Translations under genes and position numbers: made by a program
The notes under the pieces: model-generated
What the model saw: the letters and a program-made list of their open reading frames with translations, nothing else
Database searches by the model: none
Told to the model about the DNA's origin: nothing
Assembly (NCBI GenBank): GCA_947175145.1
Contig: CAMWLY010000003.1
Coordinates: 1 to 62,103, forward strand
Source: an uncultured Muribaculaceae bacterium
Lineage (GTDB): Bacteria; Bacteroidota; Bacteroidia; Bacteroidales; Muribaculaceae
DNA length: 62,103 nt
Reading direction: 5' to 3'
Shown here: piece after piece, positions 3-14,414 of the stretch
How positions within the stretch are numbered: position 1 is the stretch's first letter
Layout of the letters: every line of letters begins with the position of its first letter

Positions 3-2060
3 TTCATCGTTGGGGATGCGCTCACCAACAGTCGCAATCTTTTTGGTGACCACACCACCATCGCCAAGGTTGGCAAAACCAAGATAGACTATATGGACTA
101 TCAGCGCAAACGTGAGGAGCTCAACAATCAGCTTGAGGAAGCCCGCCGCAACAACCCCGCACAGTTTGCCAACTTCGACACCCAGATTCTGCCTGAGATG
201 GCTCTTGAGCAGCTGGTGCAGGATGCGCTTCTGACAGAAGCTGCTGAAAAAGCCGGTATCCGCAGTTCGGGCAATCTGCTTCGCTACTATATGATAGAGA
301 ATCCCCGCTCGCAAGAGGTTATGGAGATCGTTCGCCAGCTCAATGCAGCCGGTTATCCGGTGCAGACCCCTCAGCAGGCCTACGAGTTGATTTTCAACCC
401 CAAGCGCAATGGCCTCACAGAAGCCCAGGTTCAGCCCTTCCAGCAGGGATGGCTGGCAGCTGAAAAAGCTACAGAAAAGCAGATCAAACAGCAGACTTAT
501 CAGCGCCTGCTTGTAGGCTCTGTTCGCGCCAATGAACTCGACCGCAAAGCACTCTATGAAGATTACATCGCAACTTCAAATGCTCAGGTAGCATTCCTGC
601 CCTACGGAGACCTTGATGCCAAGAAGTATCCTGTGAGCGATGATGAGATCGCAAAACTTTATAAGGAGAAGAAAAACAATTTCCGCGTGAGCGAGCCCAC
701 CCGCGAAGTCAGCTTCATCGCAGTGAGCATTATGCCTTCTGATGAAGACCGCAAGGCTTCAGCTGAACTTGCACGCAAGACTGTCGCTTCTCTTCAGGCA
801 GGTCAGCTCTCCAAGGAACTTAAGAAAGAGGGTGTGAGTGTAACCCGCCACGCACTTCGCGCTTCTGATGTACCCGCAGGTCCGGCCAAGGAATATATAC
901 TCAATGGCAGCTCCGACAGCGTGCGTCTCGTATCCGAGAATCTGGCTGGCTTTACCGCCATCAAGGTTGTGAGCCGCAAAGCTGAAATTGACTCAATTCA
1001 GCTCAACATAGTATCTGCAGCCACAGAGCGTCTTGGCAACAAGATTCTGACAGCCCTCAACTCAGGTCTTGCAGCAGACAGCGTGATGAGCCGTTATCCG
1101 GCCGACAGTGTTGCAAGCCAGCTCAATCAGTGGCTCCCTCTCTATACTGCCGATGGTGCTACCAATGCTATTCCGACCGCAACACTTGATTCTCTCCGCG
1201 CAGCAGGTGGCAAATTTGTGGCTATCCAGCAGGGCCCTCAGGGCATGGTGATGGCTCAGATTGTGAAGCAGAACGCTCCTGTGACCGTATATGAATATGA
1301 TGAGGCTGTGTATCAGCTCGCCCCCAGCACCAAGACCAAAAATCAGGCAAGAGAAGCATTTGAGAAATTCCTCGGTGCTAACAATACCGCTGAGAAATTT
1401 ACCGCCAATGCTGAAAAGGCCGGTTACAATGTGCAGAACTTCACCCTCACATCTTCAACTCCTGCGATACCGAGATTCCAGGGCATGGATCAGTATTATC
1501 CCGATTCACGCCAGGTGGTTCGCTGGGTAATGATGGATGCCGACAAAGGAGAGGTCAGCCATATCTATAATTCAAGCAATGCGCTTCGCCCGGTGATGTA
1601 TGCCGTGGCTGTAGATGATGCTTACGAAGACTACCGCCCCGTGACCAACAAATCTGTCAAGGAAATCCTCACACAGGAAGTTCGCGCATCAAAAGCAGGC
1701 GACGCTCTTGTGAAGAAATATGAGAAGAACGCCAAGAGTGTTCAGGGTGCCGCAACAGCCATGGGTGTGCAGGCACAGGATATGCCCTCTGTTCGCTTCG
1801 GCATGAACCCCGGAATCTCTGACCAGGAAATCATGGGTCGTATAGCCGGTGCGAAGGCTGACAAGAAGGTGGTTATCGCCAAGGGTATCGACGGCATATA
1901 TGTATATCAGGTGCTCGGTAAAGACAAGCAGCAGTTCCCATACAACGAGCAGATGTATGACCAGCAATACTTCCAGCTTGTGAACCCTGATCTGATGAAG
2001 ATGCTCCAGGGCAAGAATAAGATAAAGAACAACATTTACAAATTCGAGGCCGGCGACTGA
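3..2060 (+). CDS. Peptidylprolyl isomerase, SurA/PpiD-like (5' end outside window)
   Basis: Frame open from base 3 (FIVGDALTNSRNLFGDHTTIAKVGKTKIDYMDYQRKREELNNQ...) into the 655 aa ORF; SurA-N-like helical region and PPIase architecture. Confidence 0.82.
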   Translation, partial: FIVGDALTNSRNLFGDHTTIAKVGKTKIDYMDYQRKREELNNQLEEARRNNPAQFANFDTQILPEMALEQLVQDALLTEAAEKAGIRSSGNLLRYYMIENPRSQEVMEIVRQLNAAGYPVQTPQQAYELIFNPKRNGLTEAQVQPFQQGWLAAEKATEKQIKQQTYQRLLVGSVRANELDRKALYEDYIATSNAQVAFLPYGDLDAKKYPVSDDEIAKLYKEKKNNFRVSEPTREVSFIAVSIMPSDEDRKASAELARKTVASLQAGQLSKELKKEGVSVTRHALRASDVPAGPAKEYILNGSSDSVRLVSENLAGFTAIKVVSRKAEIDSIQLNIVSAATERLGNKILTALNSGLAADSVMSRYPADSVASQLNQWLPLYTADGATNAIPTATLDSLRAAGGKFVAIQQGPQGMVMAQIVKQNAPVTVYEYDEAVYQLAPSTKTKNQAREAFEKFLGANNTAEKFTANAEKAGYNVQNFTLTSSTPAIPRFQGMDQYYPDSRQVVRWVMMDADKGEVSHIYNSSNALRPVMYAVAVDDAYEDYRPVTNKSVKEILTQEVRASKAGDALVKKYEKNAKSVQGAATAMGVQAQDMPSVRFGMNPGISDQEIMGRIAGAKADKKVVIAKGIDGIYVYQVLGKDKQQFPYNEQMYDQQYFQLVNPDLMKMLQGKNKIKNNIYKFEAGD

Positions 2061-2083
2061 TGCCGCCCCGAGAGCGTTATAAG

Positions 2084-2123
2084 AAAAGGAGCGGCTTCGC
2101 AAAGCGGGGTCCGCTCCTTTTTA
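2084..2123 (+). terminator. Rho-independent terminator
   Basis: AAAAGGAGCGG...CCGCTCCTTTTT stem followed by T run. Confidence 0.85.
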
Positions 2124-2175
2124 ACAGGGTTTAAATACTACCCTATAAATATCGCAACGTGTAAATACGCAACAG

Positions 2176-3231
2176 ATGGAGGAGAAGAAGAAACTCATCG
2201 GTATGAACCTGCAGGAACTGCAGGATGTGGCCTATAAAGGTAAAATGCCCAGATTTGTGGGCAAACAGCTTGCCGAATGGATATACTCCAAGGGAGCCGT
2301 GAGCTTCGACGAGATGGTCAATATCTCTAAGAAAAACAAAGCTTGGCTTGAAGAGCACTATACTATCGGGCGCAAGGCTCCGGTTGCACAGGCCAAGTCT
2401 AATGACGGCACTGTGAAATATCTCTTCGATGTCGGCTCCGGCCGTCAGGTGGAATCGGTGTATATTCCTGACCGTGACCGCGCGACTCTGTGTGTATCGA
2501 GTCAGGTGGGCTGCAAGATGAACTGTTACTTCTGCGCCACCGGCAAACTTGGATTCAAAGCCAACCTCGATGCTTCAGATATTCTGAATCAGATTTTGAG
2601 CATACCCCCCAAACCGGAGAAAGGCTTTGAGCCGATGACCCCGCTGACAAACATCGTATTTATGGGCATGGGTGAACCGCTCGACAATCTTGAGGCTGTG
2701 ATAAAAGTCATAGATATTCTCACTTCAGACTGGGGCTTCGCATGGAGCCCGAAACGCATCACTGTAAGCACTGTAGGGAAACTGCCCCAGCTCAAAGAGC
2801 TGCTTGACCGCACACAGGTGCATCTGGCCATAAGCGTACACACAGCCGATGTTGCCCAACGCGAAGCATTAATGCCGGCACAGAAAGCATTCCCGATATC
2901 GGCTGTAATGCGCACTCTGGCCGGATACGACTTCAGCCATCAGCGCCGGCTCTCTCTCGAATACATAATGTGGCGCGGCATCAATGATGATATTGCCCAT
3001 GCGGATATGCTCATAAAGCTTATCGGTAATCTGGACTGCCGGGTAAACCTTATCAGGTTTCACGCAATACCGGGAGTTGACTTGAAAACAGCTTCCGAAG
3101 AGCGCATGCTTATGTTTCGCAACTACCTGAACCAGCATGGCATAACCGCTACAATCCGCACCTCTCGCGGCGAAGATATCGCAGCTGCCTGCGGCATGCT
3201 GGCCAACCGCACTACCCAACAAGGAAATTAA
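2176..3231 (+). CDS. rlmN: 23S rRNA (adenine2503-C2)-methyltransferase, radical SAM
   Basis: CxxxCxxC motif in GCKMNCYFCATGKLGF; NIVFMGMGEPLDN; full-length 351 aa. Confidence 0.95.
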   Translation: MEEKKKLIGMNLQELQDVAYKGKMPRFVGKQLAEWIYSKGAVSFDEMVNISKKNKAWLEEHYTIGRKAPVAQAKSNDGTVKYLFDVGSGRQVESVYIPDRDRATLCVSSQVGCKMNCYFCATGKLGFKANLDASDILNQILSIPPKPEKGFEPMTPLTNIVFMGMGEPLDNLEAVIKVIDILTSDWGFAWSPKRITVSTVGKLPQLKELLDRTQVHLAISVHTADVAQREALMPAQKAFPISAVMRTLAGYDFSHQRRLSLEYIMWRGINDDIAHADMLIKLIGNLDCRVNLIRFHAIPGVDLKTASEERMLMFRNYLNQHGITATIRTSRGEDIAAACGMLANRTTQQGN

Positions 3232-3239
3232 TCAGACCG

Positions 3240-4319
3240 ATGGATAGAAAAATAAGAGTGGGAATTACCCAGGGGGATTACAACGGAATCGGCCCTGAGG
3301 TAATTCTGAAAGCACTTGAAAATGAAACAATGCTTGAATTATGCACTCCGGTGATATTTGCGGATTATCGCATAATCGAGCGCGCTATATCTCAGTTGGG
3401 GCTGGAGATGCCACCGATGCAGAAGGTATCATCGGCAGCAGATGCTTCGGATTCAAAAATCAATATAGTTGATCTCCGGCTATCTGATGCAGAGGTGACC
3501 CCCGGCCGACCCACAGCTGCATCAGGCGCAGCGAGTGTTGCCTCTCTTGAAGCCGCAATGCAGGCAATCAGCGACGGTGATATTGATGTGCTTGTCACTG
3601 CACCAATCAGCAAAGAAGCAGTGCAGTCAGAGGCTTTTCATTTCCCCGGCCACACTGAATATCTGGAAGCCAAAGCGGGCGATGGTGCAAAAGCACAGAT
3701 GATTCTTTTCGACAAGCGCCTGCGCGTGGCATTGGTAACCACTCACCTGCCTGTAAGCGAGATTGCCGGAGCGATATCCACCCAAAAGATTGCAGACAAT
3801 ATCCGTTCGCTGACCGCAACCCTGACAAGCGACTTCGGAATTGAGCGCCCGAAAATTGCAGTACTCTCCCTTAACCCTCACTGCGGCGACGGAGGTTTGC
3901 TCGGCAATGAGGAAAATGATATAATCATACCTGCCATCGATGAATGTATCGGTGAAGGAATACTCGCCTTCGGACCATACGCTGCCGATGGATTCTTCGG
4001 CTCGGGAGCATATCGAAATTTCGATGGCGTGCTGGCTATGTATCATGACCAGGGACTTGCCCCGTTCAAGACATTGGCCGGCGATGGCGGAGTGAATTTC
4101 ACTGCGGGATTGCCCTTCGTCCGCACAAGCCCGGATCATGGCACCGCCTATGATATAGCCCGGAAAGGTGAAGCTGATGCGGCCTCCATGCGCGAGGCGA
4201 TATATTCAGCCATAGATATACGCCGCAACCGCGACATATACCTTGAAGCATCAGCCAATCCGCTTCAGCACACCCCGACAGAAAGACCACCGCGCAAACC
4301 CAAAACTGATAATCCATGA
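3240..4319 (+). CDS. pdxA: 4-hydroxythreonine-4-phosphate dehydrogenase
   Basis: GITQGDYNGIGPEVILKAL, TAPISKEA, PGHTEYL, AMYHDQGLAPFK motifs. Confidence 0.95.
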   Translation: MDRKIRVGITQGDYNGIGPEVILKALENETMLELCTPVIFADYRIIERAISQLGLEMPPMQKVSSAADASDSKINIVDLRLSDAEVTPGRPTAASGAASVASLEAAMQAISDGDIDVLVTAPISKEAVQSEAFHFPGHTEYLEAKAGDGAKAQMILFDKRLRVALVTTHLPVSEIAGAISTQKIADNIRSLTATLTSDFGIERPKIAVLSLNPHCGDGGLLGNEENDIIIPAIDECIGEGILAFGPYAADGFFGSGAYRNFDGVLAMYHDQGLAPFKTLAGDGGVNFTAGLPFVRTSPDHGTAYDIARKGEADAASMREAIYSAIDIRRNRDIYLEASANPLQHTPTERPPRKPKTDNP

Positions 4320-5029
4320 ATTTCGGAATTATAGCAGCCGGCGAAGGTAGCCGCCTTGCCGCCGAGGGAGTTGAATACCCGAAGCCATTGGTGCCGATAT
4401 GCGGTGTGCCGATGATCGGACGCCTGATTCGCATCTTCGAGCGCTGCGGAGCCAAGCAGATTTCCATAGTAGTCAATGAGCAAATGACCGAAGTAGCGGA
4501 ATATTTGAGGGGATTCGAATGCGCTCCCGGAGTAAAACTTGATATCACAGTCAAGACCACTCCCTCCTCCATGCACTCCATGCATGAGCTTGCGTCGCGT
4601 CTTCGCGGCAAAGGGCGGTTCATAGTTACCACCGTCGATACGATATTTCGCGAAGAGGATTTCGCCGCCTATGCCGCAGATTTCGAAAAGGCACCTGCTG
4701 AAGTCGACGGCATGATGGCGGTGACCGGATATGTAGATGACGAGAAACCTCTCTGGGTCGGCACCGATGCCGATATGCGCATCACCGCATTTCGCGACAG
4801 CCGCGATCCGGAAGACCGATATATATCGGGCGGCATATACGGACTCGATTCCAAAGCATTTGAGACACTCGACCACTGTGTGAGCCAAGGGGTGAGCCGT
4901 ATGCGCAATTTCCAGCGTGCTCTTGTGGCCGACGGACTCAATCTGCGCGCATATAACCTCGGCAAAGTGCTCGATGTGGACCATGCCTCCGATATCGAAA
5001 AAGCCGAATTGTTTCTGAAAGCAGAATAA
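4316..5029 (+). CDS. NTP transferase (MobA-like / sugar- or inositol-phosphate nucleotidyltransferase)
   Basis: N-terminal AAGEGSRLAAEGVEYPKPLVPICGVPMI signature; ATG overlaps the pdxA stop. Confidence 0.85.
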   Translation: MNFGIIAAGEGSRLAAEGVEYPKPLVPICGVPMIGRLIRIFERCGAKQISIVVNEQMTEVAEYLRGFECAPGVKLDITVKTTPSSMHSMHELASRLRGKGRFIVTTVDTIFREEDFAAYAADFEKAPAEVDGMMAVTGYVDDEKPLWVGTDADMRITAFRDSRDPEDRYISGGIYGLDSKAFETLDHCVSQGVSRMRNFQRALVADGLNLRAYNLGKVLDVDHASDIEKAELFLKAE

Positions 5030-5043
5030 CCCAAAAGTTAGAG

Positions 5044-5913
5044 ATGGCAGACATAAGAATAGCCGGTGTGATGAGAGCCGGTGCTTATTCCCCCAATCAC
5101 ATAGGTAATGACGCGGCAATCTTTAACGCCGTGGCCGACCGGCTCCGCAAACGCGGTTGCGAAGTCCGGATATATAGCGAAGAGCAGTTTCAAAGCCTGC
5201 CGATTGAGGAGGAGATAGTACTCAATATGTGTCGAGAGCAGGAGTCAATCCGCAAACTCATAGAACTTGAGGAGCAGGGCTGCCTGGTAATCAACAGCGG
5301 CCAGGGAATCGAAAACTGCACACGCGAGAGAATGACGAGAATCCTGATTTCACACGATGTGCCCTATCCTGAATCCCTCATAGTCAATACAAATGAAGAT
5401 GTGCGCCCGGCACTTGAGGAAGCAGGCTTCACCTCATGCTGGATAAAGCGTGGCGACTTTCACGCCATGCACAAGGAAGATGTATCCTACGCGCGACATC
5501 CTCAGGAAACTCAGGAGATGCTTCATGAGTATTATTACCGCGGCATCAAGAGAGCAGTAATCAACAGACACCTTGTGGGCGACCTCGTAAAGTTTTATGG
5601 AGTAAGCGGAGAACCCTTCTTCCACTGGTTCTACCCCTTCGACGAGGGGCACTCCAAATATGGCTATGAAGCCGTCAACGGTCACTCCAAAGGTATTCCT
5701 TTTGATATCGAGGCACTCAAAGCCACCTGCCAGCGGGCATCGGATATCATGAATGTTAAGATTTACGGTGGCGACTGTATTGTCGATGCCGATGGCACTG
5801 TGAGAATCATAGACTTCAACGACTGGCCGAGCTTCGCGCCCTGCCGCGAAGAGGGGGCTGTGGCAATCGCAAAATGTGTACTGAAAAGCATACGCGAATG
5901 GAAGAAAAGATAA
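5044..5913 (+). CDS. ATP-grasp-like protein
   Basis: 289 aa; ATP-grasp-like C-terminus YGGDCIVDADGTVRIIDFNDWPSF; located inside the inositol-related cluster. Confidence 0.65.
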   Translation: MADIRIAGVMRAGAYSPNHIGNDAAIFNAVADRLRKRGCEVRIYSEEQFQSLPIEEEIVLNMCREQESIRKLIELEEQGCLVINSGQGIENCTRERMTRILISHDVPYPESLIVNTNEDVRPALEEAGFTSCWIKRGDFHAMHKEDVSYARHPQETQEMLHEYYYRGIKRAVINRHLVGDLVKFYGVSGEPFFHWFYPFDEGHSKYGYEAVNGHSKGIPFDIEALKATCQRASDIMNVKIYGGDCIVDADGTVRIIDFNDWPSFAPCREEGAVAIAKCVLKSIREWKKR

Positions 5914-6869
5914 CCGATACAAAAACCTCAGATACAAAACAAGGATTCCGCGCCTCTCTGAAATCCATGGATACCGAGGAGCATATCGACCTCTATTTTT
6001 ACAGGCCGATAGGATACGCATGGGCGCTGCTCGCCAAGCGTCTCGGCGTGACTCCCAACGCTATCACCATCGCCTCGATATTTCTCGGTGTAGGAGCCGG
6101 TGTGTGCTTCTACTTCAACAATATATGGTGGAACCTGCTGGGTATGTTTCTGCTCATCTGGGCTGATTCATTTGACAGCGCAGACGGTCAGTTGGCGCGT
6201 CTCACAGGTCAATATTCCCGCTTAGGCCGAATACTCGATGGTCTGAGCGGCGATATATGGTTCTTTACCATTTATGTAGCTATATGTTTGCGTGAGAATG
6301 TCACCTCCGACTTCTTTATGAACCACCAATGGGTGATATGGGTTATGGCTATAGTGACAGGCTTGTGTCACGCCACTCAGGCAGCAATGGCCGATTACTA
6401 CCGCCAGTTTCATCTCTATTTCCTCAAGGGAGCCGGAGGTAGCGAATTGGAAAATGGCACCGCACTGCGCAAAAAATACTCCGAACTCAGTTGGAGTAAA
6501 AATTTCTGGAGCAAACTCGTGATGACTTTCTATCTGAATTACACACTTGGTCAGGAAAAACGCACACCGCGAATGCAATCGCTGCGCGCTGCTCTCCTAC
6601 AGCGGTTCCCCAATGGCGTGATTCCTCAGAAATTTCGCGATGAGTTCCGCGCACTGAGCCTGCCGCTTATGAAATATACCAACATACTGTCGTTCAATGT
6701 GCGCACCATAGCCCTCTTCGCTGCAATCCTCATATTCAGGATGCCCTGGTTATATTTCGCATTCGAACTGACAGTACTCAATATAATACTTGTTTATATG
6801 ATGGTGCGCCATGAAAAAATCTGCACCACTCTGACAAATCAACTTGAAAATTCGAATTATGAATATTGA
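5898..6869 (+). CDS. CDP-alcohol phosphatidyltransferase family protein
   Basis: DSADGQLARLTGQYSRLGRILD motif (DxxDGxxAR...GxxxD) plus multiple TM segments; start taken at internal ATG (MEEKITDT). Confidence 0.88.
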   Translation: MEEKITDTKTSDTKQGFRASLKSMDTEEHIDLYFYRPIGYAWALLAKRLGVTPNAITIASIFLGVGAGVCFYFNNIWWNLLGMFLLIWADSFDSADGQLARLTGQYSRLGRILDGLSGDIWFFTIYVAICLRENVTSDFFMNHQWVIWVMAIVTGLCHATQAAMADYYRQFHLYFLKGAGGSELENGTALRKKYSELSWSKNFWSKLVMTFYLNYTLGQEKRTPRMQSLRAALLQRFPNGVIPQKFRDEFRALSLPLMKYTNILSFNVRTIALFAAILIFRMPWLYFAFELTVLNIILVYMMVRHEKICTTLTNQLENSNYEY

Positions 6870-7578
6870 TATTACCAAAGTCAAGGGAATCATTTTTGAT
6901 TACGGCGGCACACTTGATTCAGGTGGCGACCATTGGAGCGAAGTAATATGGAGTGCATGGCAGAAGGCCGGAATCGCGGTAGAGAAGCCGGTGTTCAGAG
7001 AGGCCTATGTATATGCCGAGCGCGAATTGGCACGCGTGCGTCATATACTCCCTGCTCATGATTTTCATGACATGCTGGGCATCAAGATGAATATCGAATT
7101 GCAGTGGTTAGCCCAACAAGGTCTCTTCCCACCCGAACAAATCGAACCTAAAGCCGCTGAAACCGCAGATTACTGCTATGAGGCCGCCAAAGCCTCGATT
7201 GCCAAGGCAGTGCCAGTGCTTGAAGCTTTGTCTCAGAAATATCCTCTCGTGCTGGTATCTAATTTCTATGGCAATGTCTCGACAGTGCTTGAGGATTTCG
7301 GCATAAGAAAATATTTCAAGGGTATAGTGGAAAGCGCCGTGATGGGTATTCGCAAACCGGACCCGCGCATATTCGAACATGGCGTAAAGGCGCTGGGAAT
7401 CCTCCCCTCGCAAACACTCGTGATCGGCGACTCATATCGCAAAGATATCGTTCCGGCCGAATCGATAGGCTGTCAGGTGCTATGGCTCAAAGGTAAAGGC
7501 TGGACCGCTGAAGAAGATGCCCAACTTCACCCCAATATAATATCAGACCTCGGTCAGGTGCTTGATTTTATCCAATAA
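6859..7578 (+). CDS. HAD family hydrolase (class IA)
   Basis: IIFDYGGTLDSGG, VLVSNFYGN, GIRKPDPRIF, VIGDSYRKDI motifs; ATG start at 6859 rather than upstream TTG. Confidence 0.88.
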   Translation: MNIDITKVKGIIFDYGGTLDSGGDHWSEVIWSAWQKAGIAVEKPVFREAYVYAERELARVRHILPAHDFHDMLGIKMNIELQWLAQQGLFPPEQIEPKAAETADYCYEAAKASIAKAVPVLEALSQKYPLVLVSNFYGNVSTVLEDFGIRKYFKGIVESAVMGIRKPDPRIFEHGVKALGILPSQTLVIGDSYRKDIVPAESIGCQVLWLKGKGWTAEEDAQLHPNIISDLGQVLDFIQ

Positions 7579-7707
7579 GCGATATGGCCTTATTTGCATA
7601 AATTCACACAAACATAAAATTTCCAACTTAAATTAACCTATTTTAACTATATCGGGTATCAAATAAGATTTTTTAAGAATTTGGAAGGTGAATTTATGTG
7701 AAATCGC
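7579..7707. repeat. Inverted repeat CATAAATTCAC / GTGAATTTATG with outer GCGAT / ATCGC
   Basis: 7597-7607 and 7688-7698 are perfect reverse complements separated by ~80 bp of AT-rich DNA. Confidence 0.7.
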
Positions 7708-7867
7708 TTTGAGGAATGCAAAATAGAATATAATTTTACACCGACTATCGCCCGGATTGGCTCGCTGTCTATAATCTTGTAATAGTTAGCAGCGTATACG
7801 AACTAAAGCATCATAATCAAGCGAAGGGTGATACCCAAAAGAAACAGACAATAACAAACACAACGCT

Positions 7868-9196
7868 ATGTCAACGAAAAAAGCAGAACCAGCCAAGGGT
7901 AAGCTTGGTGTGATGGTGGTAGGCCTCGGAGCTGTAACCACTACTTTCATGACCGGTGTGCTTATGGCTCGCAAAGGTCTTGCCAAGCCGGTAGGCTCCA
8001 TGACTCAGTATGACAAAATAAGAGTAGGCCGCGGTGCCGACAAGAAATATCTTCACTATAAGGATATCGTGCCTCTGGCAGATCTCAACGACATCGTATT
8101 TGCCGCTTGGGACGTTTACCCTGCCAATGCCTACGAATCAGCTATCAACGCTGAGGTACTTAAGGAGAAAGATATCAACCCCGTAAAAGAGGAACTCGAG
8201 GCTATCAAGCCTATGAAGGCCGCTTTCGACAAGAATTATGCAAAGCGTCTTGACGGCGACAATGTAAAGCAGGTCAAGGATCGCTGGGATATGGTTGAAC
8301 AGCTCCGCGAGGATATCCGCAATTTCAAGAAGGAAACAGGTGTGGATCGTGTAGTGGTACTTTGGGCAGCTTCAACCGAGGTATACGTGCCAATCGATGA
8401 AGAGGTGCACGGCTCACTCGAAGCTCTCGAAAAAGCCATGAAGGCCGATGACAAAGAGCGCATCGCTCCCTCCATGTGTTATGCCTACGCTGCTCTGTCG
8501 GAAGGCGCTCCCTTTATCATGGGCGCTCCCAACACCACTGTCGATATTCCGGCCATGTGGGAACTCGCCGAGAAAACCGGTATGCCTATCGCAGGCAAGG
8601 ACTTCAAGACCGGTCAGACTCTGGTAAAATCAGGTTTCGCACCCATCATCGGCACACGCTGCCTGGGTCTCAACGGCTGGTTCTCTACAAATATCCTCGG
8701 AAACCGCGATGGTCTCGTGCTTGACGAACCCGCAAACTTCCGCACCAAAGAGGTTTCAAAACTTTCTACTCTCGAAAGTATCCTGGTGCCCGAAGAGCAG
8801 CCCGACCTCTATGGCCACGGCAATGACGAAGACACCCAGTATTATCATAAAGTGCGCATCAACTACTACCCCCCGCGCAATGACAACAAAGAGGGCTGGG
8901 ACAACATCGACATCTTCGGCTGGATGGGATATCCCATGCAGATTAAGATCAACTTCCTCTGCCGCGATTCAATTCTCGCTGCTCCCCTCTGCCTCGACCT
9001 GGTGCTCCTCAGCGACCTCGCAGCCCGCGCCGGACGCAGCGGAACTCAGCGTTTCCTCAGCTTCTTCCTCAAGAGCCCGATGCATGATTACACCAAGGGT
9101 GAAGTGCCTGTGAACCACCTCTTCCAGCAGTACACCATGCTCAAGAACGCTATCCGCGAAATGGGTGGCTACGAAGCCGACGAAGAAATCGATTAA
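7868..9196 (+). CDS. ino1: Inositol-3-phosphate synthase (MIPS)
   Basis: GVMVVGLGAVTTTFMTGV Rossmann start; NTTVDIPAMWELAEKTGMPIAGKDFKTGQT; 442 aa. Confidence 0.92.
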   Translation: MSTKKAEPAKGKLGVMVVGLGAVTTTFMTGVLMARKGLAKPVGSMTQYDKIRVGRGADKKYLHYKDIVPLADLNDIVFAAWDVYPANAYESAINAEVLKEKDINPVKEELEAIKPMKAAFDKNYAKRLDGDNVKQVKDRWDMVEQLREDIRNFKKETGVDRVVVLWAASTEVYVPIDEEVHGSLEALEKAMKADDKERIAPSMCYAYAALSEGAPFIMGAPNTTVDIPAMWELAEKTGMPIAGKDFKTGQTLVKSGFAPIIGTRCLGLNGWFSTNILGNRDGLVLDEPANFRTKEVSKLSTLESILVPEEQPDLYGHGNDEDTQYYHKVRINYYPPRNDNKEGWDNIDIFGWMGYPMQIKINFLCRDSILAAPLCLDLVLLSDLAARAGRSGTQRFLSFFLKSPMHDYTKGEVPVNHLFQQYTMLKNAIREMGGYEADEEID

Positions 9197-10079: not shown

Positions 10080-10152
10080 GCCGCAATAGCTCAGTTGGTA
10101 GAGCATTTCATTCGTAACGAAAAGGTCGTGGGTTCGAGTCCCACTCGCGGCT
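10080..10152 (+). tRNA. tRNA-Thr (anticodon CGT)
   Basis: 73 nt cloverleaf GCCGCAA..AGCTCAGTTGGTAGAGC..TTCGTAA..GTGGGTTCGAGTCCCAC..; anticodon loop TT-CGT-AA; no encoded CCA. Confidence 0.93.
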
Positions 10153-10156
10153 CTGA

Positions 10157-10517: not shown

Positions 10518-11771
10518 ATGAAACATTATTTATTAATCCCTGCTGTTATGGCCATGGCTATCGTATTGGCCGGTTGTGAGACCATTCAGGAACCATCAGA
10601 TCAGGTTGCAAAAGTTCAGACCAACAGCACCTCAACTCGTGGTTCTGAAATCGGTGATAGACCATACAGCCTATCTGAGGTAATTCGCATTGCGGATAAT
10701 ACCCTTTCGGTTACCCCTGCTACCTCCCCAAGAAAACTTGTTGAGCCTGTATTACTCAACGACAATACGCTTTCGTCTCAAATTTTGAGTGATACAGTTG
10801 CGTATATTGTAAACTATGGTCAAAAAGATGGATTTGTGATTGTAGCAAATGACAGCCGACTTCCTGACCCAATTGCATATAACACAAAAGGGCACTTTGA
10901 TTCAGCTAATCCTTCAGCCAAGGTTGCCTTCTTGGATCGCATCGAAACATATTTGGCTTCATTAAATTCTCCTGAGACACAGAATCAACAAAAATCGAAG
11001 TCTGCTTCATCTCCTGTAAGGCGTTTTATAATAGGCCCGCAAATTAACTTGCCTTTGGGCTGTACAAATACATTTAATGAGGTTATAGGTAAATATCACT
11101 CTGGAGCTTACGTAAGTACAGGTTGTATTGCTATGGCAACACTACTCACATATTGTAAGGATACATTAGTTTACCATAATTATTATTATGATTTTCCAAA
11201 ATGTGCGCAGGACGTGAGATCGCATTTTGGCCCTGCGTCTATTAGTCAAACTGAATTAAATTACACTAAGCCTGATAATCCTCCAACACCGGTAAATCCT
11301 CCAAAGCCCGGATACTTTTATTTTCTTGATGGTATCTCAGCGTATAATCAGCTATTGTATGATCTTGGGGAAGATACAAAAACTACATATTATGAAGATG
11401 ACGCTCCATATACAAGCATGATGGATGTATATAACAGGCTTTTTTATCTAGACCTTTCTTTAACACCTTTAAAATTAAAAAATTTTAGCACTATAATTCA
11501 ACTATTAAATGATGAATATTATGTTGAAATGTGGGGAGAAGTAAAAAGCAAAGATGGTTCAGTTCCTGAACTTTATTTTATGTCTCCTACTTTCACATGG
11601 ATAATTGATGGCTGCGATGTGTATGTAGATTCCACCGGTAATCCATTAGATGGAATGCTTCATTGTGTATGGGGTCATTTTGGATTAGGAGATGGCTATT
11701 ATTCATACCCGGTTCTTTTGCAAGATGATAATTATGACTTCTCATTATCTTTCTATTGGGGCGTTAAATAA
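10518..11771 (+). CDS. Secreted C10 (streptopain)-like family lipoprotein, active site apparently degenerate
   Basis: Lipobox VLAGC; prodomain-like region; STGCIAMATL resembles the C10 catalytic Cys motif; FTWIIDG..HCVWGHFGLGDGYY resembles the C-terminal half of C10 peptidases. Confidence 0.65.
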   Translation: MKHYLLIPAVMAMAIVLAGCETIQEPSDQVAKVQTNSTSTRGSEIGDRPYSLSEVIRIADNTLSVTPATSPRKLVEPVLLNDNTLSSQILSDTVAYIVNYGQKDGFVIVANDSRLPDPIAYNTKGHFDSANPSAKVAFLDRIETYLASLNSPETQNQQKSKSASSPVRRFIIGPQINLPLGCTNTFNEVIGKYHSGAYVSTGCIAMATLLTYCKDTLVYHNYYYDFPKCAQDVRSHFGPASISQTELNYTKPDNPPTPVNPPKPGYFYFLDGISAYNQLLYDLGEDTKTTYYEDDAPYTSMMDVYNRLFYLDLSLTPLKLKNFSTIIQLLNDEYYVEMWGEVKSKDGSVPELYFMSPTFTWIIDGCDVYVDSTGNPLDGMLHCVWGHFGLGDGYYSYPVLLQDDNYDFSLSFYWGVK

Positions 11772-13708: not shown

Positions 13709-13797
13709 GGATTTCAGATTTCAGATTGTTAATTGCTCATTGTGCATTGTGCATTGTGCATTGTGCATTGTGCATTGATAATTGTGCATTGATAATT
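13709..13797 (+). repeat. Right arm of inverted repeat pair with ATTGTGC heptad array
   Basis: GGATTTCAGATTTCAGATTGTTAATTGCTCATTGTGCATTGTGC(x5)ATTGATAATTGTGCATTGATAAT. Confidence 0.85.
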
Positions 13798-14414
13798 TGC
13801 TTGAAAAAGTCAGAAATATCGGAAATCAGCTTCAGGATTATACCGAGAAACTTGTATTTAGCTTTGCTGACATTGCCTCATATCGAAAAGTCAAGTCTAA
13901 TCTCGAAAATAGCTGCATTAATTATATTGAGTGGAATGAAGATTTAATGATTGAGTTCGGTCGAAAATTATACGATCTGAATAGTGAACAAGGATGGAAT
14001 TTCAGACTTGCTACATGTGGGGAGAAGATTGATTTGACAAATTATGGGATAGAGTATCATAGATGTGTTGATGATGAATTGATTACACGTATCTCATGGC
14101 AGGATAAGTTGCTTATGGATCATCTTGAGATGAAGGTTAATACTCTAACTCCGAGTCTTTTTGGTAATGCTGAGATTCCGGACGAAGGAATTATCCTTGA
14201 TGACAGGCATTATGCTTTTCGGACTCGTAATAATCGCGATTCCGGTCAGCGACAATATTGCGGCTGTATAAGTGCTAAAGATATAGGTCAGTATAATACT
14301 TGTCCGCACGGCTGTGTTTATTGCTATGCAAATTCTTCTCCTGATTCCGCCCGCAAAAAATTTCAACAACATGATCCCCTTTCCGCAATAATAACGAAAT
14401 TTCTCTTTCCATAG
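13782..14414 (+). pseudogene. DUF1848 family protein, 5'-truncated remnant
   Basis: DYTEKLVFSFADIASYRKVKSNL and RQYCGCISAKDIGQYNTCPHGCVYCYAN match the C-terminal half of DUF1848; the N-terminal half is absent and the junction is the repeat block. Confidence 0.7.

What the first reader, a model, noticed from the sequence alone, without database searches (positions are those of the whole stretch)
4316..9196. Five-gene cluster resembling a CDP-inositol pathway: NTP transferase, ATP-grasp, CDP-alcohol phosphotransferase, HAD phosphatase, MIPS
Seen: four same-strand, overlapping or abutting genes (4316-7578) followed by inositol-3-phosphate synthase. Established knowledge: MIPS makes inositol-phosphate; in thermophiles MIPS plus an inositol-1-P cytidylyltransferase and a CDP-alcohol-family phosphotransferase and phosphatase make di-myo-inositol-phosphate; some gut Bacteroidetes make inositol lipids including inositol sphingolipids. 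Inference: this cluster may form CDP-inositol and transfer inositol-phosphate onto a lipid or a second polyol. That differs from the classical CDP-diacylglycerol route, because no cytidylyltransferase for phosphatidate is in the cluster.
Basis: partly seen in the sequence, partly recalled or inferred. Interest (0 to 1): 0.75.

Follow-up and report, generated by a model that had tools for sequence, protein, structure and literature searches.

The report
Bacterial inositol-lipid headgroup gene cluster
A gut bacterium carries a five-gene set that most likely builds an inositol headgroup and puts it on a membrane sphingolipid; most of the set was already proposed for this job in 2022, but one gene, for an enzyme resembling eukaryotic inositol-phosphate kinases, had been left out and would change the proposed pathway.

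Summary
The five genes are really there, in the stated order. The host is a Muribaculaceae-type member of Bacteroidales. The set is the 'putative alternative inositol lipid cluster' of Heaver et al. 2022 (PMC9246714), who already proposed CDP-inositol, so the central inference is not new and remains untested. New here: (1) The ATP-grasp gene, not mentioned in that paper, is a constant member. It occurs in 39 of 295 genomes of the order, 35 of which have MIPS (Fisher p about 1e-29). It is sometimes fused to the NTP transferase. Its best sequence-profile relatives in the PDB are inositol-phosphate kinases (ITPK). (2) The CDP-alcohol phosphotransferase lacks the fourth signature Asp, the catalytic base (Gly in every cluster copy read), and the HAD lacks the second motif-I Asp. 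(3) The host genome has serine palmitoyltransferase but no PI-dihydroceramide synthase. Published lipidomics found inositol-ceramide but no diacyl-PI in P. vulgatus, so direct transfer to dihydroceramide fits better than a PI-DAG intermediate. (4) Another class of the phylum has the same set with MCE lipid-transport genes, a flippase and inositol-dehydrogenase-like and aminotransferase genes. The kinase assignment is an inference: fold search does not separate kinases from ligases.

The parts
4316..5029 (+). NTP transferase, 237 aa, proposed CTP:inositol(-phosphate) cytidylyltransferase; R13, K23, D108 invariant in 26 homologues
   Evidence: Pfam PF12804 1.1e-12; family profile matches T. maritima and A. 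fulgidus inositol-1-P cytidylyltransferases at 2.4e-8 and 2.5e-7, but RmlA-type enzymes score higher, 4.9e-11; alignment A3
5044..5913 (+). ATP-grasp protein, 289 aa, proposed inositol or inositol-phosphate kinase; K135, K183, D244, D257-x-N259-D260-x-P262-S263 conserved in at least 133 of 135 homologues
   Evidence: AF2 model pLDDT 92.7; profile top PDB hit ITPK1 1z2n 8.3e-9; conservation; co-occurrence with MIPS
5874..6869 (+). CDP-alcohol phosphotransferase, 331 aa (possible start at 5898), signature D..DG..AR........GRILDGLSGD with Gly in place of the fourth Asp
   Evidence: PF01066 1.7e-12; AF2 model pLDDT 92.8, best fold hits AF2299, IPCT-DIPPS and PIP synthase; motif across the family
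6859..7578 (+). HAD-family hydrolase, 239 aa from ATG (ORF listed from TTG 6844), motif I DYGGT (second Asp replaced by Gly), proposed phosphomonoesterase
   Evidence: PF00702 1e-19; invariant nucleophile Asp, Lys and GDS...D motif; position and conservation
7868..9196 (+). myo-inositol-3-phosphate synthase (MIPS), 442 aa, the only one found in the genome
   Evidence: PF07994 4.6e-105; single copy in own genome
3240..4319 (+). PdxA, upstream neighbour overlapping the NTP transferase by 4 bases; not part of the pathway
   Evidence: TIGR00557 2.5e-112; conserved neighbour

Best explanation
The cluster makes an inositol-phosphate lipid headgroup, most likely inositol-phosphoryl dihydroceramide. 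MIPS makes D-inositol-3-phosphate (shown by homology). The ATP-grasp protein, an ITPK-like kinase, adds a phosphate at another hydroxyl, most likely D-1 (inferred). The NTP transferase joins that phosphate to CMP, giving a CDP-inositol species (inferred). The membrane CDP-alcohol phosphotransferase moves phosphoinositol from it directly onto dihydroceramide (inferred). The HAD removes the surplus phosphate, either at the lipid stage (PIP-lipid to PI-lipid) or earlier from Ins3P (inferred). A kinase plus a phosphatase would move the attachment point from position 3 to position 1, giving the same stereochemistry as the B. thetaiotaomicron route, and would account for every gene in the set. Rough confidence by layer: inositol lipid cluster about 0.9; CDP-inositol route about 0.75; ceramide as direct acceptor about 0.6; ATP-grasp as an inositol(-phosphate) kinase about 0.5. 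The stated confidence is for the cluster working as a CDP-inositol to sphingolipid pathway with the ATP-grasp as a working member.
For: Same cluster as the published alternative inositol lipid cluster, found there in species shown by mass spectrometry to make PI-DHC without the BT genes. Gene order conserved, with NTP-ATPgrasp fusions in four genomes and an NTP-ATPgrasp-CAP triple fusion in one. ATP-grasp in 39 and MIPS in 49 of 295 genomes, 35 shared, p = 1.4e-29. When the cluster is split, all five genes persist, as HAD-NTP-MIPS in one place and ATPgrasp-CAP in another. In G139 the ATP-grasp sits inside a BT-type inositol cluster with MIPS, PI-DHC synthase and a BT_1523-like enzyme but no NTP/CAP, which ties it to inositol. 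ATP-grasp profile: best PDB match ITPK1 8.3e-9; shared D-x-N-x-x-P-S-[FY] and a Lys where RimK and PsnB have Arg. Reverse test: the Pfam ITPK model run over 295 whole genomes puts four members of this family among its five best hits. SPT present, PI-DHC synthase and BT_1523-like enzyme absent in the host. P. vulgatus has Cer-PI but no detected diacyl-PI. Other-class clusters add MlaE/ABC/MlaD, a flippase and an inositol-2-dehydrogenase-like gene. CAP paralogues with other cytidylyltransferases lack the ATP-grasp, HAD and MIPS, two of them (L077, L079) at the same PdxA site.
Against: No biochemistry. Foldseek on the ATP-grasp model ranks ligases (Ddl, PsnB, ArgX) first and an ITPK eleventh. The window protein itself hits NCBIfam RimK models (3.8e-8, partial) and no Pfam ITPK model. 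The CAP lacks the residue whose D-to-N change nearly abolishes activity in MtPIPS, so its catalysis is unexplained. The HAD lacks the usual second Asp. Four genomes have the ATP-grasp without a MIPS hit, one of them 99% complete. Nucleotide and substrate specificity of this NTP family cannot be read from homology: CpgD looks most like an inositol-phosphate cytidylyltransferase but uses phosphoglycerate (PMC12275187). Absence of diacyl-PI in P. vulgatus comes from one extraction and one study.
Confidence: 0.6

Rival explanations
1. Published Kennedy-like model: NTP transferase makes CDP-inositol from Ins3P, the phosphotransferase makes PI-DAG from DAG, and the HAD then transfers the headgroup to dihydroceramide; the ATP-grasp is incidental.
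For: Proposed in PMC9246714; needs no kinase; CAP fold resembles AF2299 and IPCT-DIPPS, which use soluble CDP-alcohols.
Against: The ATP-grasp is as constant as the other genes and fused to the NTP transferase in several genomes. A soluble HAD with phosphatase motifs is an unlikely headgroup transferase (inference). No diacyl-PI was detected in P. vulgatus although Cer-PI was.
Confidence: 0.15
2. The ATP-grasp is a RimK-like ligase that adds an amino acid or peptide to the headgroup, the lipid or a carrier, so the product is an aminoacylated inositol lipid.
For: Partial RimK/LysX/MptN matches in NCBIfam; ligases lead the fold search; some related clusters contain an aminotransferase and two ATP-grasp genes.
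Against: D-x-N-x-x-P-S-[FY] and the invariant K183 match ITPKs, not the E-x-N and Arg of RimK and PsnB in the same alignments. The Pfam ITPK model finds this family. Known PI-DHC carries no amino acid (literature).
Confidence: 0.15
3. PIP-synthase route: the phosphotransferase uses CDP-DAG or CDP-ceramide with Ins3P, the HAD is the PIP phosphatase, and the NTP transferase and ATP-grasp serve something else.
For: Parallel to the BT pathway, in which a phosphatase follows the transferase; PIP synthases are among the CAP fold hits.
Against: The NTP transferase is constant, adjacent or fused. The sequence is far from the BT_1523 family: 22.7 bits against a cut-off of 350.
Confidence: 0.07
4. The product is a soluble osmolyte of the di-myo-inositol-phosphate type.
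For: Same enzyme types as the hyperthermophile pathway.
Against: Mesophilic gut host; flippase, MCE/Mla lipid transport and SPT context; PI-DHC found in cluster-bearing species.
Confidence: 0.03

Closest known systems
Putative alternative inositol lipid cluster of Phocaeicola vulgatus/Prevotella (Heaver et al. 2022, PMC9246714)
   Same: NTP transferase, CDP-alcohol phosphotransferase and HAD next to MIPS, without BT_1522/23/25 homologues
   Different: The paper does not mention the ATP-grasp, notes no departure from the CDP-AP motif, and assigns the HAD as PI-DHC synthase
BT_1522-BT_1526 inositol lipid pathway of B. thetaiotaomicron
   Same: Starts with MIPS, ends in PI-DHC, includes a phosphatase
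   Different: Uses CDP-DAG and a PIP-DAG intermediate, a PgpA-type phosphatase and an AUR1-like synthase; none of these transferase types was found in the window's genome
IPCT/DIPPS of Archaeoglobus and Thermococcales
   Same: Inositol-phosphate cytidylyltransferase paired with a CDP-alcohol phosphotransferase
   Different: There the two domains are fused and make a soluble solute; here they are separate, with an ATP-grasp, a HAD and a membrane-lipid context
ITPK/PPIP5K inositol-phosphate kinases (ATP-grasp fold)
   Same: Fold, D-x-N-x-x-P-S-[FY] motif and equivalent Lys; ITPK1 acts on inositol monophosphates in eukaryotes (PMC12077091)
   Different: Very low sequence identity; the window protein scores no hit to the Pfam ITPK model
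CpgD (Caulobacter phosphoglycerate cytidylyltransferase)
   Same: Same cytidylyltransferase fold family feeding a sphingolipid headgroup pathway
   Different: Different alcohol phosphate; no MIPS or ATP-grasp reported

Membership tests
Alternative inositol lipid cluster (Heaver 2022) | NTP transferase, CDP-alcohol phosphotransferase and HAD near MIPS | tested here: met
Alternative inositol lipid cluster (Heaver 2022) | BT_1522/BT_1523-type genes absent | tested here: met
   own genome: no NF052609, no NF052561 hit other than the window CAP itself; the genome is 93.8% complete; BT_1525-type phosphatase not searched
Alternative inositol lipid cluster (Heaver 2022) | production of PI-DHC | not testable with these tools
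   needs lipidomics; SPT gene present
CDP-alcohol phosphotransferase, strict signature D1xxD2GxxAR...GxxxD3xxxD4 | first seven signature residues | tested here: met
CDP-alcohol phosphotransferase, strict signature D1xxD2GxxAR...GxxxD3xxxD4 | fourth Asp (catalytic base) | tested here: not met
   Gly in all cluster copies read; described as absolutely conserved and essential in PMC4634129. Homology and fold are still met
Inositol-1-phosphate cytidylyltransferase (IPCT) | active-site Arg, Lys, Asp (R16, K26, D112 of T. maritima IMPCT) | tested here: inconclusive
   R13, K23, D108 invariant, matched by motif position and not by a residue-level alignment to IMPCT; these residues are common to sugar nucleotidyltransferases
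Inositol-1-phosphate cytidylyltransferase (IPCT) | use of CTP and inositol phosphate | not testable with these tools
   needs assay
ITPK family (PF05770) | score above the curated model cut-off | tested here: not met
   no hit for the window protein; only the distant member in G294 passes
ITPK family (PF05770) | D-x-N metal motif and Lys in the K-[VF]-[FY] strand | tested here: met
HAD phosphatase | motif I DxD | tested here: not met
   DYGGT or close variants (Gly at the second Asp) throughout the family
HAD phosphatase | nucleophile Asp, motif III Lys, motif IV acidic residues | tested here: met
MIPS | both Pfam domains above cut-off | tested here: met

The most novel reading that the evidence does not exclude
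Bacteroidota possess a dedicated bacterial inositol-phosphate kinase of the ATP-grasp/ITPK type that works in making membrane inositol sphingolipids: it turns the MIPS product into a bisphosphate, which is activated as CDP-inositol-phosphate, transferred directly to ceramide by a CDP-alcohol phosphotransferase lacking the canonical catalytic base, and trimmed by a DxG-type HAD. In another class of the phylum the same system appears to make an amino-inositol lipid.
Probability: 0.3. Interest if true: 0.78.

Novelty: new member of a known kind. Interest (0 to 1): 0.5.

Why it matters
Inositol sphingolipids of gut Bacteroidota affect capsule, antimicrobial-peptide resistance and colonisation (PMC9246714), and the alternative cluster that many species carry instead of the characterised one is untested. 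Recognising the ATP-grasp gene as a constant part changes which genes must be expressed to rebuild the pathway, predicts a testable stereochemistry (position 1 versus 3 attachment) and a phosphorylated intermediate, and would place an ITPK-like kinase in bacteria. The phosphotransferase is a natural test case for how this enzyme family works without its supposedly indispensable base.

Tried and rejected
Rejected: soluble di-inositol-phosphate solute (lipid-transport and flippase neighbours, SPT in the host). Rejected: that the cluster is new (described in 2022). Inconclusive: fold search of the ATP-grasp model, a generic ATP-grasp result. Inconclusive: NTP-transferase specificity by profile search. 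HAD profile search gave only generic HAD structures. The ITPK1 inositol-monophosphate paper (PMC6900528) is not held. No search found an experimental test of the alternative cluster after 2022; only open-licence papers were searchable. The residue that replaces the missing Asp in the phosphotransferase could not be found: invariant H166 and D174 are candidates, but no coordinates were available to test distance.
Full report
What is there. The five ORFs are at the stated places and strand. Pfam gives the NTP transferase, CDP-alcohol phosphotransferase (CAP), HAD and MIPS above curated cut-offs. The ATP-grasp ORF has no Pfam family, partial RimK-type matches in NCBIfam and a confident AlphaFold2 model (mean pLDDT 92.7) with an ATP-grasp fold. 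PdxA overlaps the first gene by four bases, and HAD and MIPS are separated by 289 bases. The window belongs to a 2.07 Mb, 93.8% complete assembly with a single MIPS; its nearest named relatives are Muribaculaceae MAGs.

Is it already known? Heaver et al. 2022 (PMC9246714) described in P. vulgatus and Prevotella an 'alternate cluster' of NTP transferase, CDP-alcohol phosphatidyltransferase and HAD near MIPS. They proposed CDP-inositol formation, transfer to DAG giving PI-DAG, and conversion to PI-DHC by the HAD, all unconfirmed. The words 'ATP-grasp' do not occur in the main text. Reviews repeat the proposal as in silico only. I found no later test; only open-licence papers could be searched.

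How constant are the parts? Searching 295 genomes of the order, the ATP-grasp is in 39 (40 matches, one of them a weak unrelated hit) and MIPS in 49, with 35 shared; Fisher p = 1.4e-29. One of the 35, G184, has only a weak MIPS match. Reading 40 loci showed the order NTP - ATP-grasp - CAP - (LPG_synthase_TM-type flippase) - HAD - MIPS over and over. There are four NTP-ATPgrasp fusions, one NTP-ATPgrasp-CAP fusion and one flippase-HAD fusion (flippase identity). Eighty further named loci show the same pattern. In a set of rumen and gut genomes the cluster is split into PdxA-HAD-NTP-MIPS and ATPgrasp-CAP, with all five genes kept. Among MIPS genomes without the ATP-grasp, several read in detail carry a BT_1523-like transferase with the canonical motif next to MIPS.

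An informative exception. In G139, of the same family as the window, the ATP-grasp gene lies in a BT-type cluster: MIPS, PI-DHC synthase (NF052609, over its cut-off), BT_1523-like transferase, a 204-aa gene that looks GtrA-like, ATP-grasp. The NTP, CAP and HAD genes of the alternative cluster are not there, and no CAP of the window's type is found in that genome. This single case ties the ATP-grasp to inositol rather than to the transferase, although it could be a relic: it has lost a segment.

What is the ATP-grasp? A profile of 29 members searched against all PDB sequences gives ITPK1 of Entamoeba first (8.3e-9), then the graspetide ligase PsnB (3.5e-6), plant ITPK4 (1.5e-4), RimK (5e-4) and human ITPK1 (1.5e-3). 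Run the other way, the Pfam ITPK model searched against 295 whole genomes has four members of this family among its five best hits, one over the curated cut-off. Motifs agree: D-x-N-D-x-P-S is present in 134 of 135 members, the exception being a gap, and the K of 'VKFY' in all 135. In the printed alignments ITPKs show D-x-N with P-S-[FY], whereas RimK and PsnB have E-x-N and an Arg in place of that Lys. Against this, Foldseek lists ligases first and StITPK1 eleventh, so kinase versus ligase is not settled. ITPK1 is known to act on inositol monophosphates in eukaryotes (PMC12077091), a precedent for acting on the MIPS product.

The phosphotransferase. Its AF2 model (pLDDT 92.8) resembles AF2299, IPCT-DIPPS and PIP synthases. 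Seven of the eight signature residues are kept; the fourth Asp is Gly in every cluster copy read, including another class of the phylum, with D, N, E or other residues one position later. PMC4634129 calls the signature absolutely conserved and shows that D4N nearly abolishes MtPIPS activity. Paralogous CAPs without the Asp occur with a TagD-like cytidylyltransferase, SDR and acyltransferase, or with an IspD-like cytidylyltransferase. Two of these cassettes, L077 and L079, occupy the same RlmN-PdxA site that holds the inositol set elsewhere. These cassettes lack ATP-grasp, HAD and MIPS, which suggests that those three go with inositol. Eukaryotic CHPT1 uses a His/Glu pair as base (PMC10182977); the invariant H166 and D174 here are candidates only.

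The acceptor. The host genome encodes serine palmitoyltransferase (NF047600, 646.8 bits over a cut-off of 640) but no PI-DHC synthase, no PAP2_3 match of note and no BT_1523-like enzyme. P. vulgatus, which has the alternative cluster, had Cer-PI at 1% of sphingolipids and no detected diacyl PI, while B. thetaiotaomicron had both (PMC10056535). Direct transfer to dihydroceramide therefore fits better than a PI-DAG intermediate; this is my inference from their data.

A wider relative. This supports a lipid product and an inositol-derived headgroup, and suggests an amino-inositol variant.

Mechanism and status. Shown by sequence: gene content, order, co-occurrence, motifs, absence of BT-type enzymes. 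Inferred: Ins3P from MIPS; a second phosphorylation by the ATP-grasp; CDP activation; transfer to dihydroceramide; dephosphorylation by the HAD. The HAD also lacks the usual second Asp of motif I, so its activity needs a test. Ordering of kinase and phosphatase is open: bisphosphate route or free-inositol route.

Verdict. A real, ordinary-looking but incompletely understood instance of a published putative pathway. The useful additions are the ATP-grasp as a constant, ITPK-like component and the loss of the canonical base in the transferase.

Noticed in passing
L072 8742-10668, L075 7650-11704, L076 8019-11215, L079 7383-10320, L078, L080: A second headgroup cassette: TagD-like cytidylyltransferase (PF01467; identified in L075 and L079), SDR, CAP without the fourth Asp, flippase or PlsC-like acyltransferase; a candidate for ceramide phosphoethanolamine or phosphoglycerol synthesis.
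   Followed up: partly
L077 4488-10552: At the PPI-RlmN-PdxA site that holds the inositol cluster in congeners, this genome has a CAP plus an IspD/TarI-like cytidylyltransferase, as if headgroup cassettes are swapped at one site.
   Followed up: partly
L210-L213, L215-L217, L219: Extended clusters in another class with MCE/Mla transport genes (read in L213), class-III aminotransferase and inositol-2-dehydrogenase-like gene, possibly for an amino-inositol lipid; some have two tandem ATP-grasp genes.
   Followed up: partly
L045 134-4968: ATP-grasp gene inside a BT-type inositol lipid cluster (MIPS, PI-DHC synthase, BT_1523-like, 204-aa gene looking GtrA-like).
   Followed up: partly
L059-L061 about 500-6500: Upstream of the inositol cluster lies another CAP (with the canonical fourth Asp) and a divergent NTP transferase; in L060 also two GNAT-like genes, a class I/II aminotransferase and a LysE-type exporter.
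   Followed up: partly
L081 620-3147: A decayed copy: NTP transferase fused in frame to the end of a CAP, lacking the CAP motif and the ATP-grasp, with a HAD fragment, in a genome without MIPS.
   Followed up: no
window 10518-11771: Peptidase C10 with a Spi-type inhibitor domain, shortly after a tRNA-Thr (10080-10153).
   Followed up: no
window 13782-14414: DUF1848 ORF that matches only the C-terminal half of the family model; may be truncated or frameshifted.
   Followed up: no
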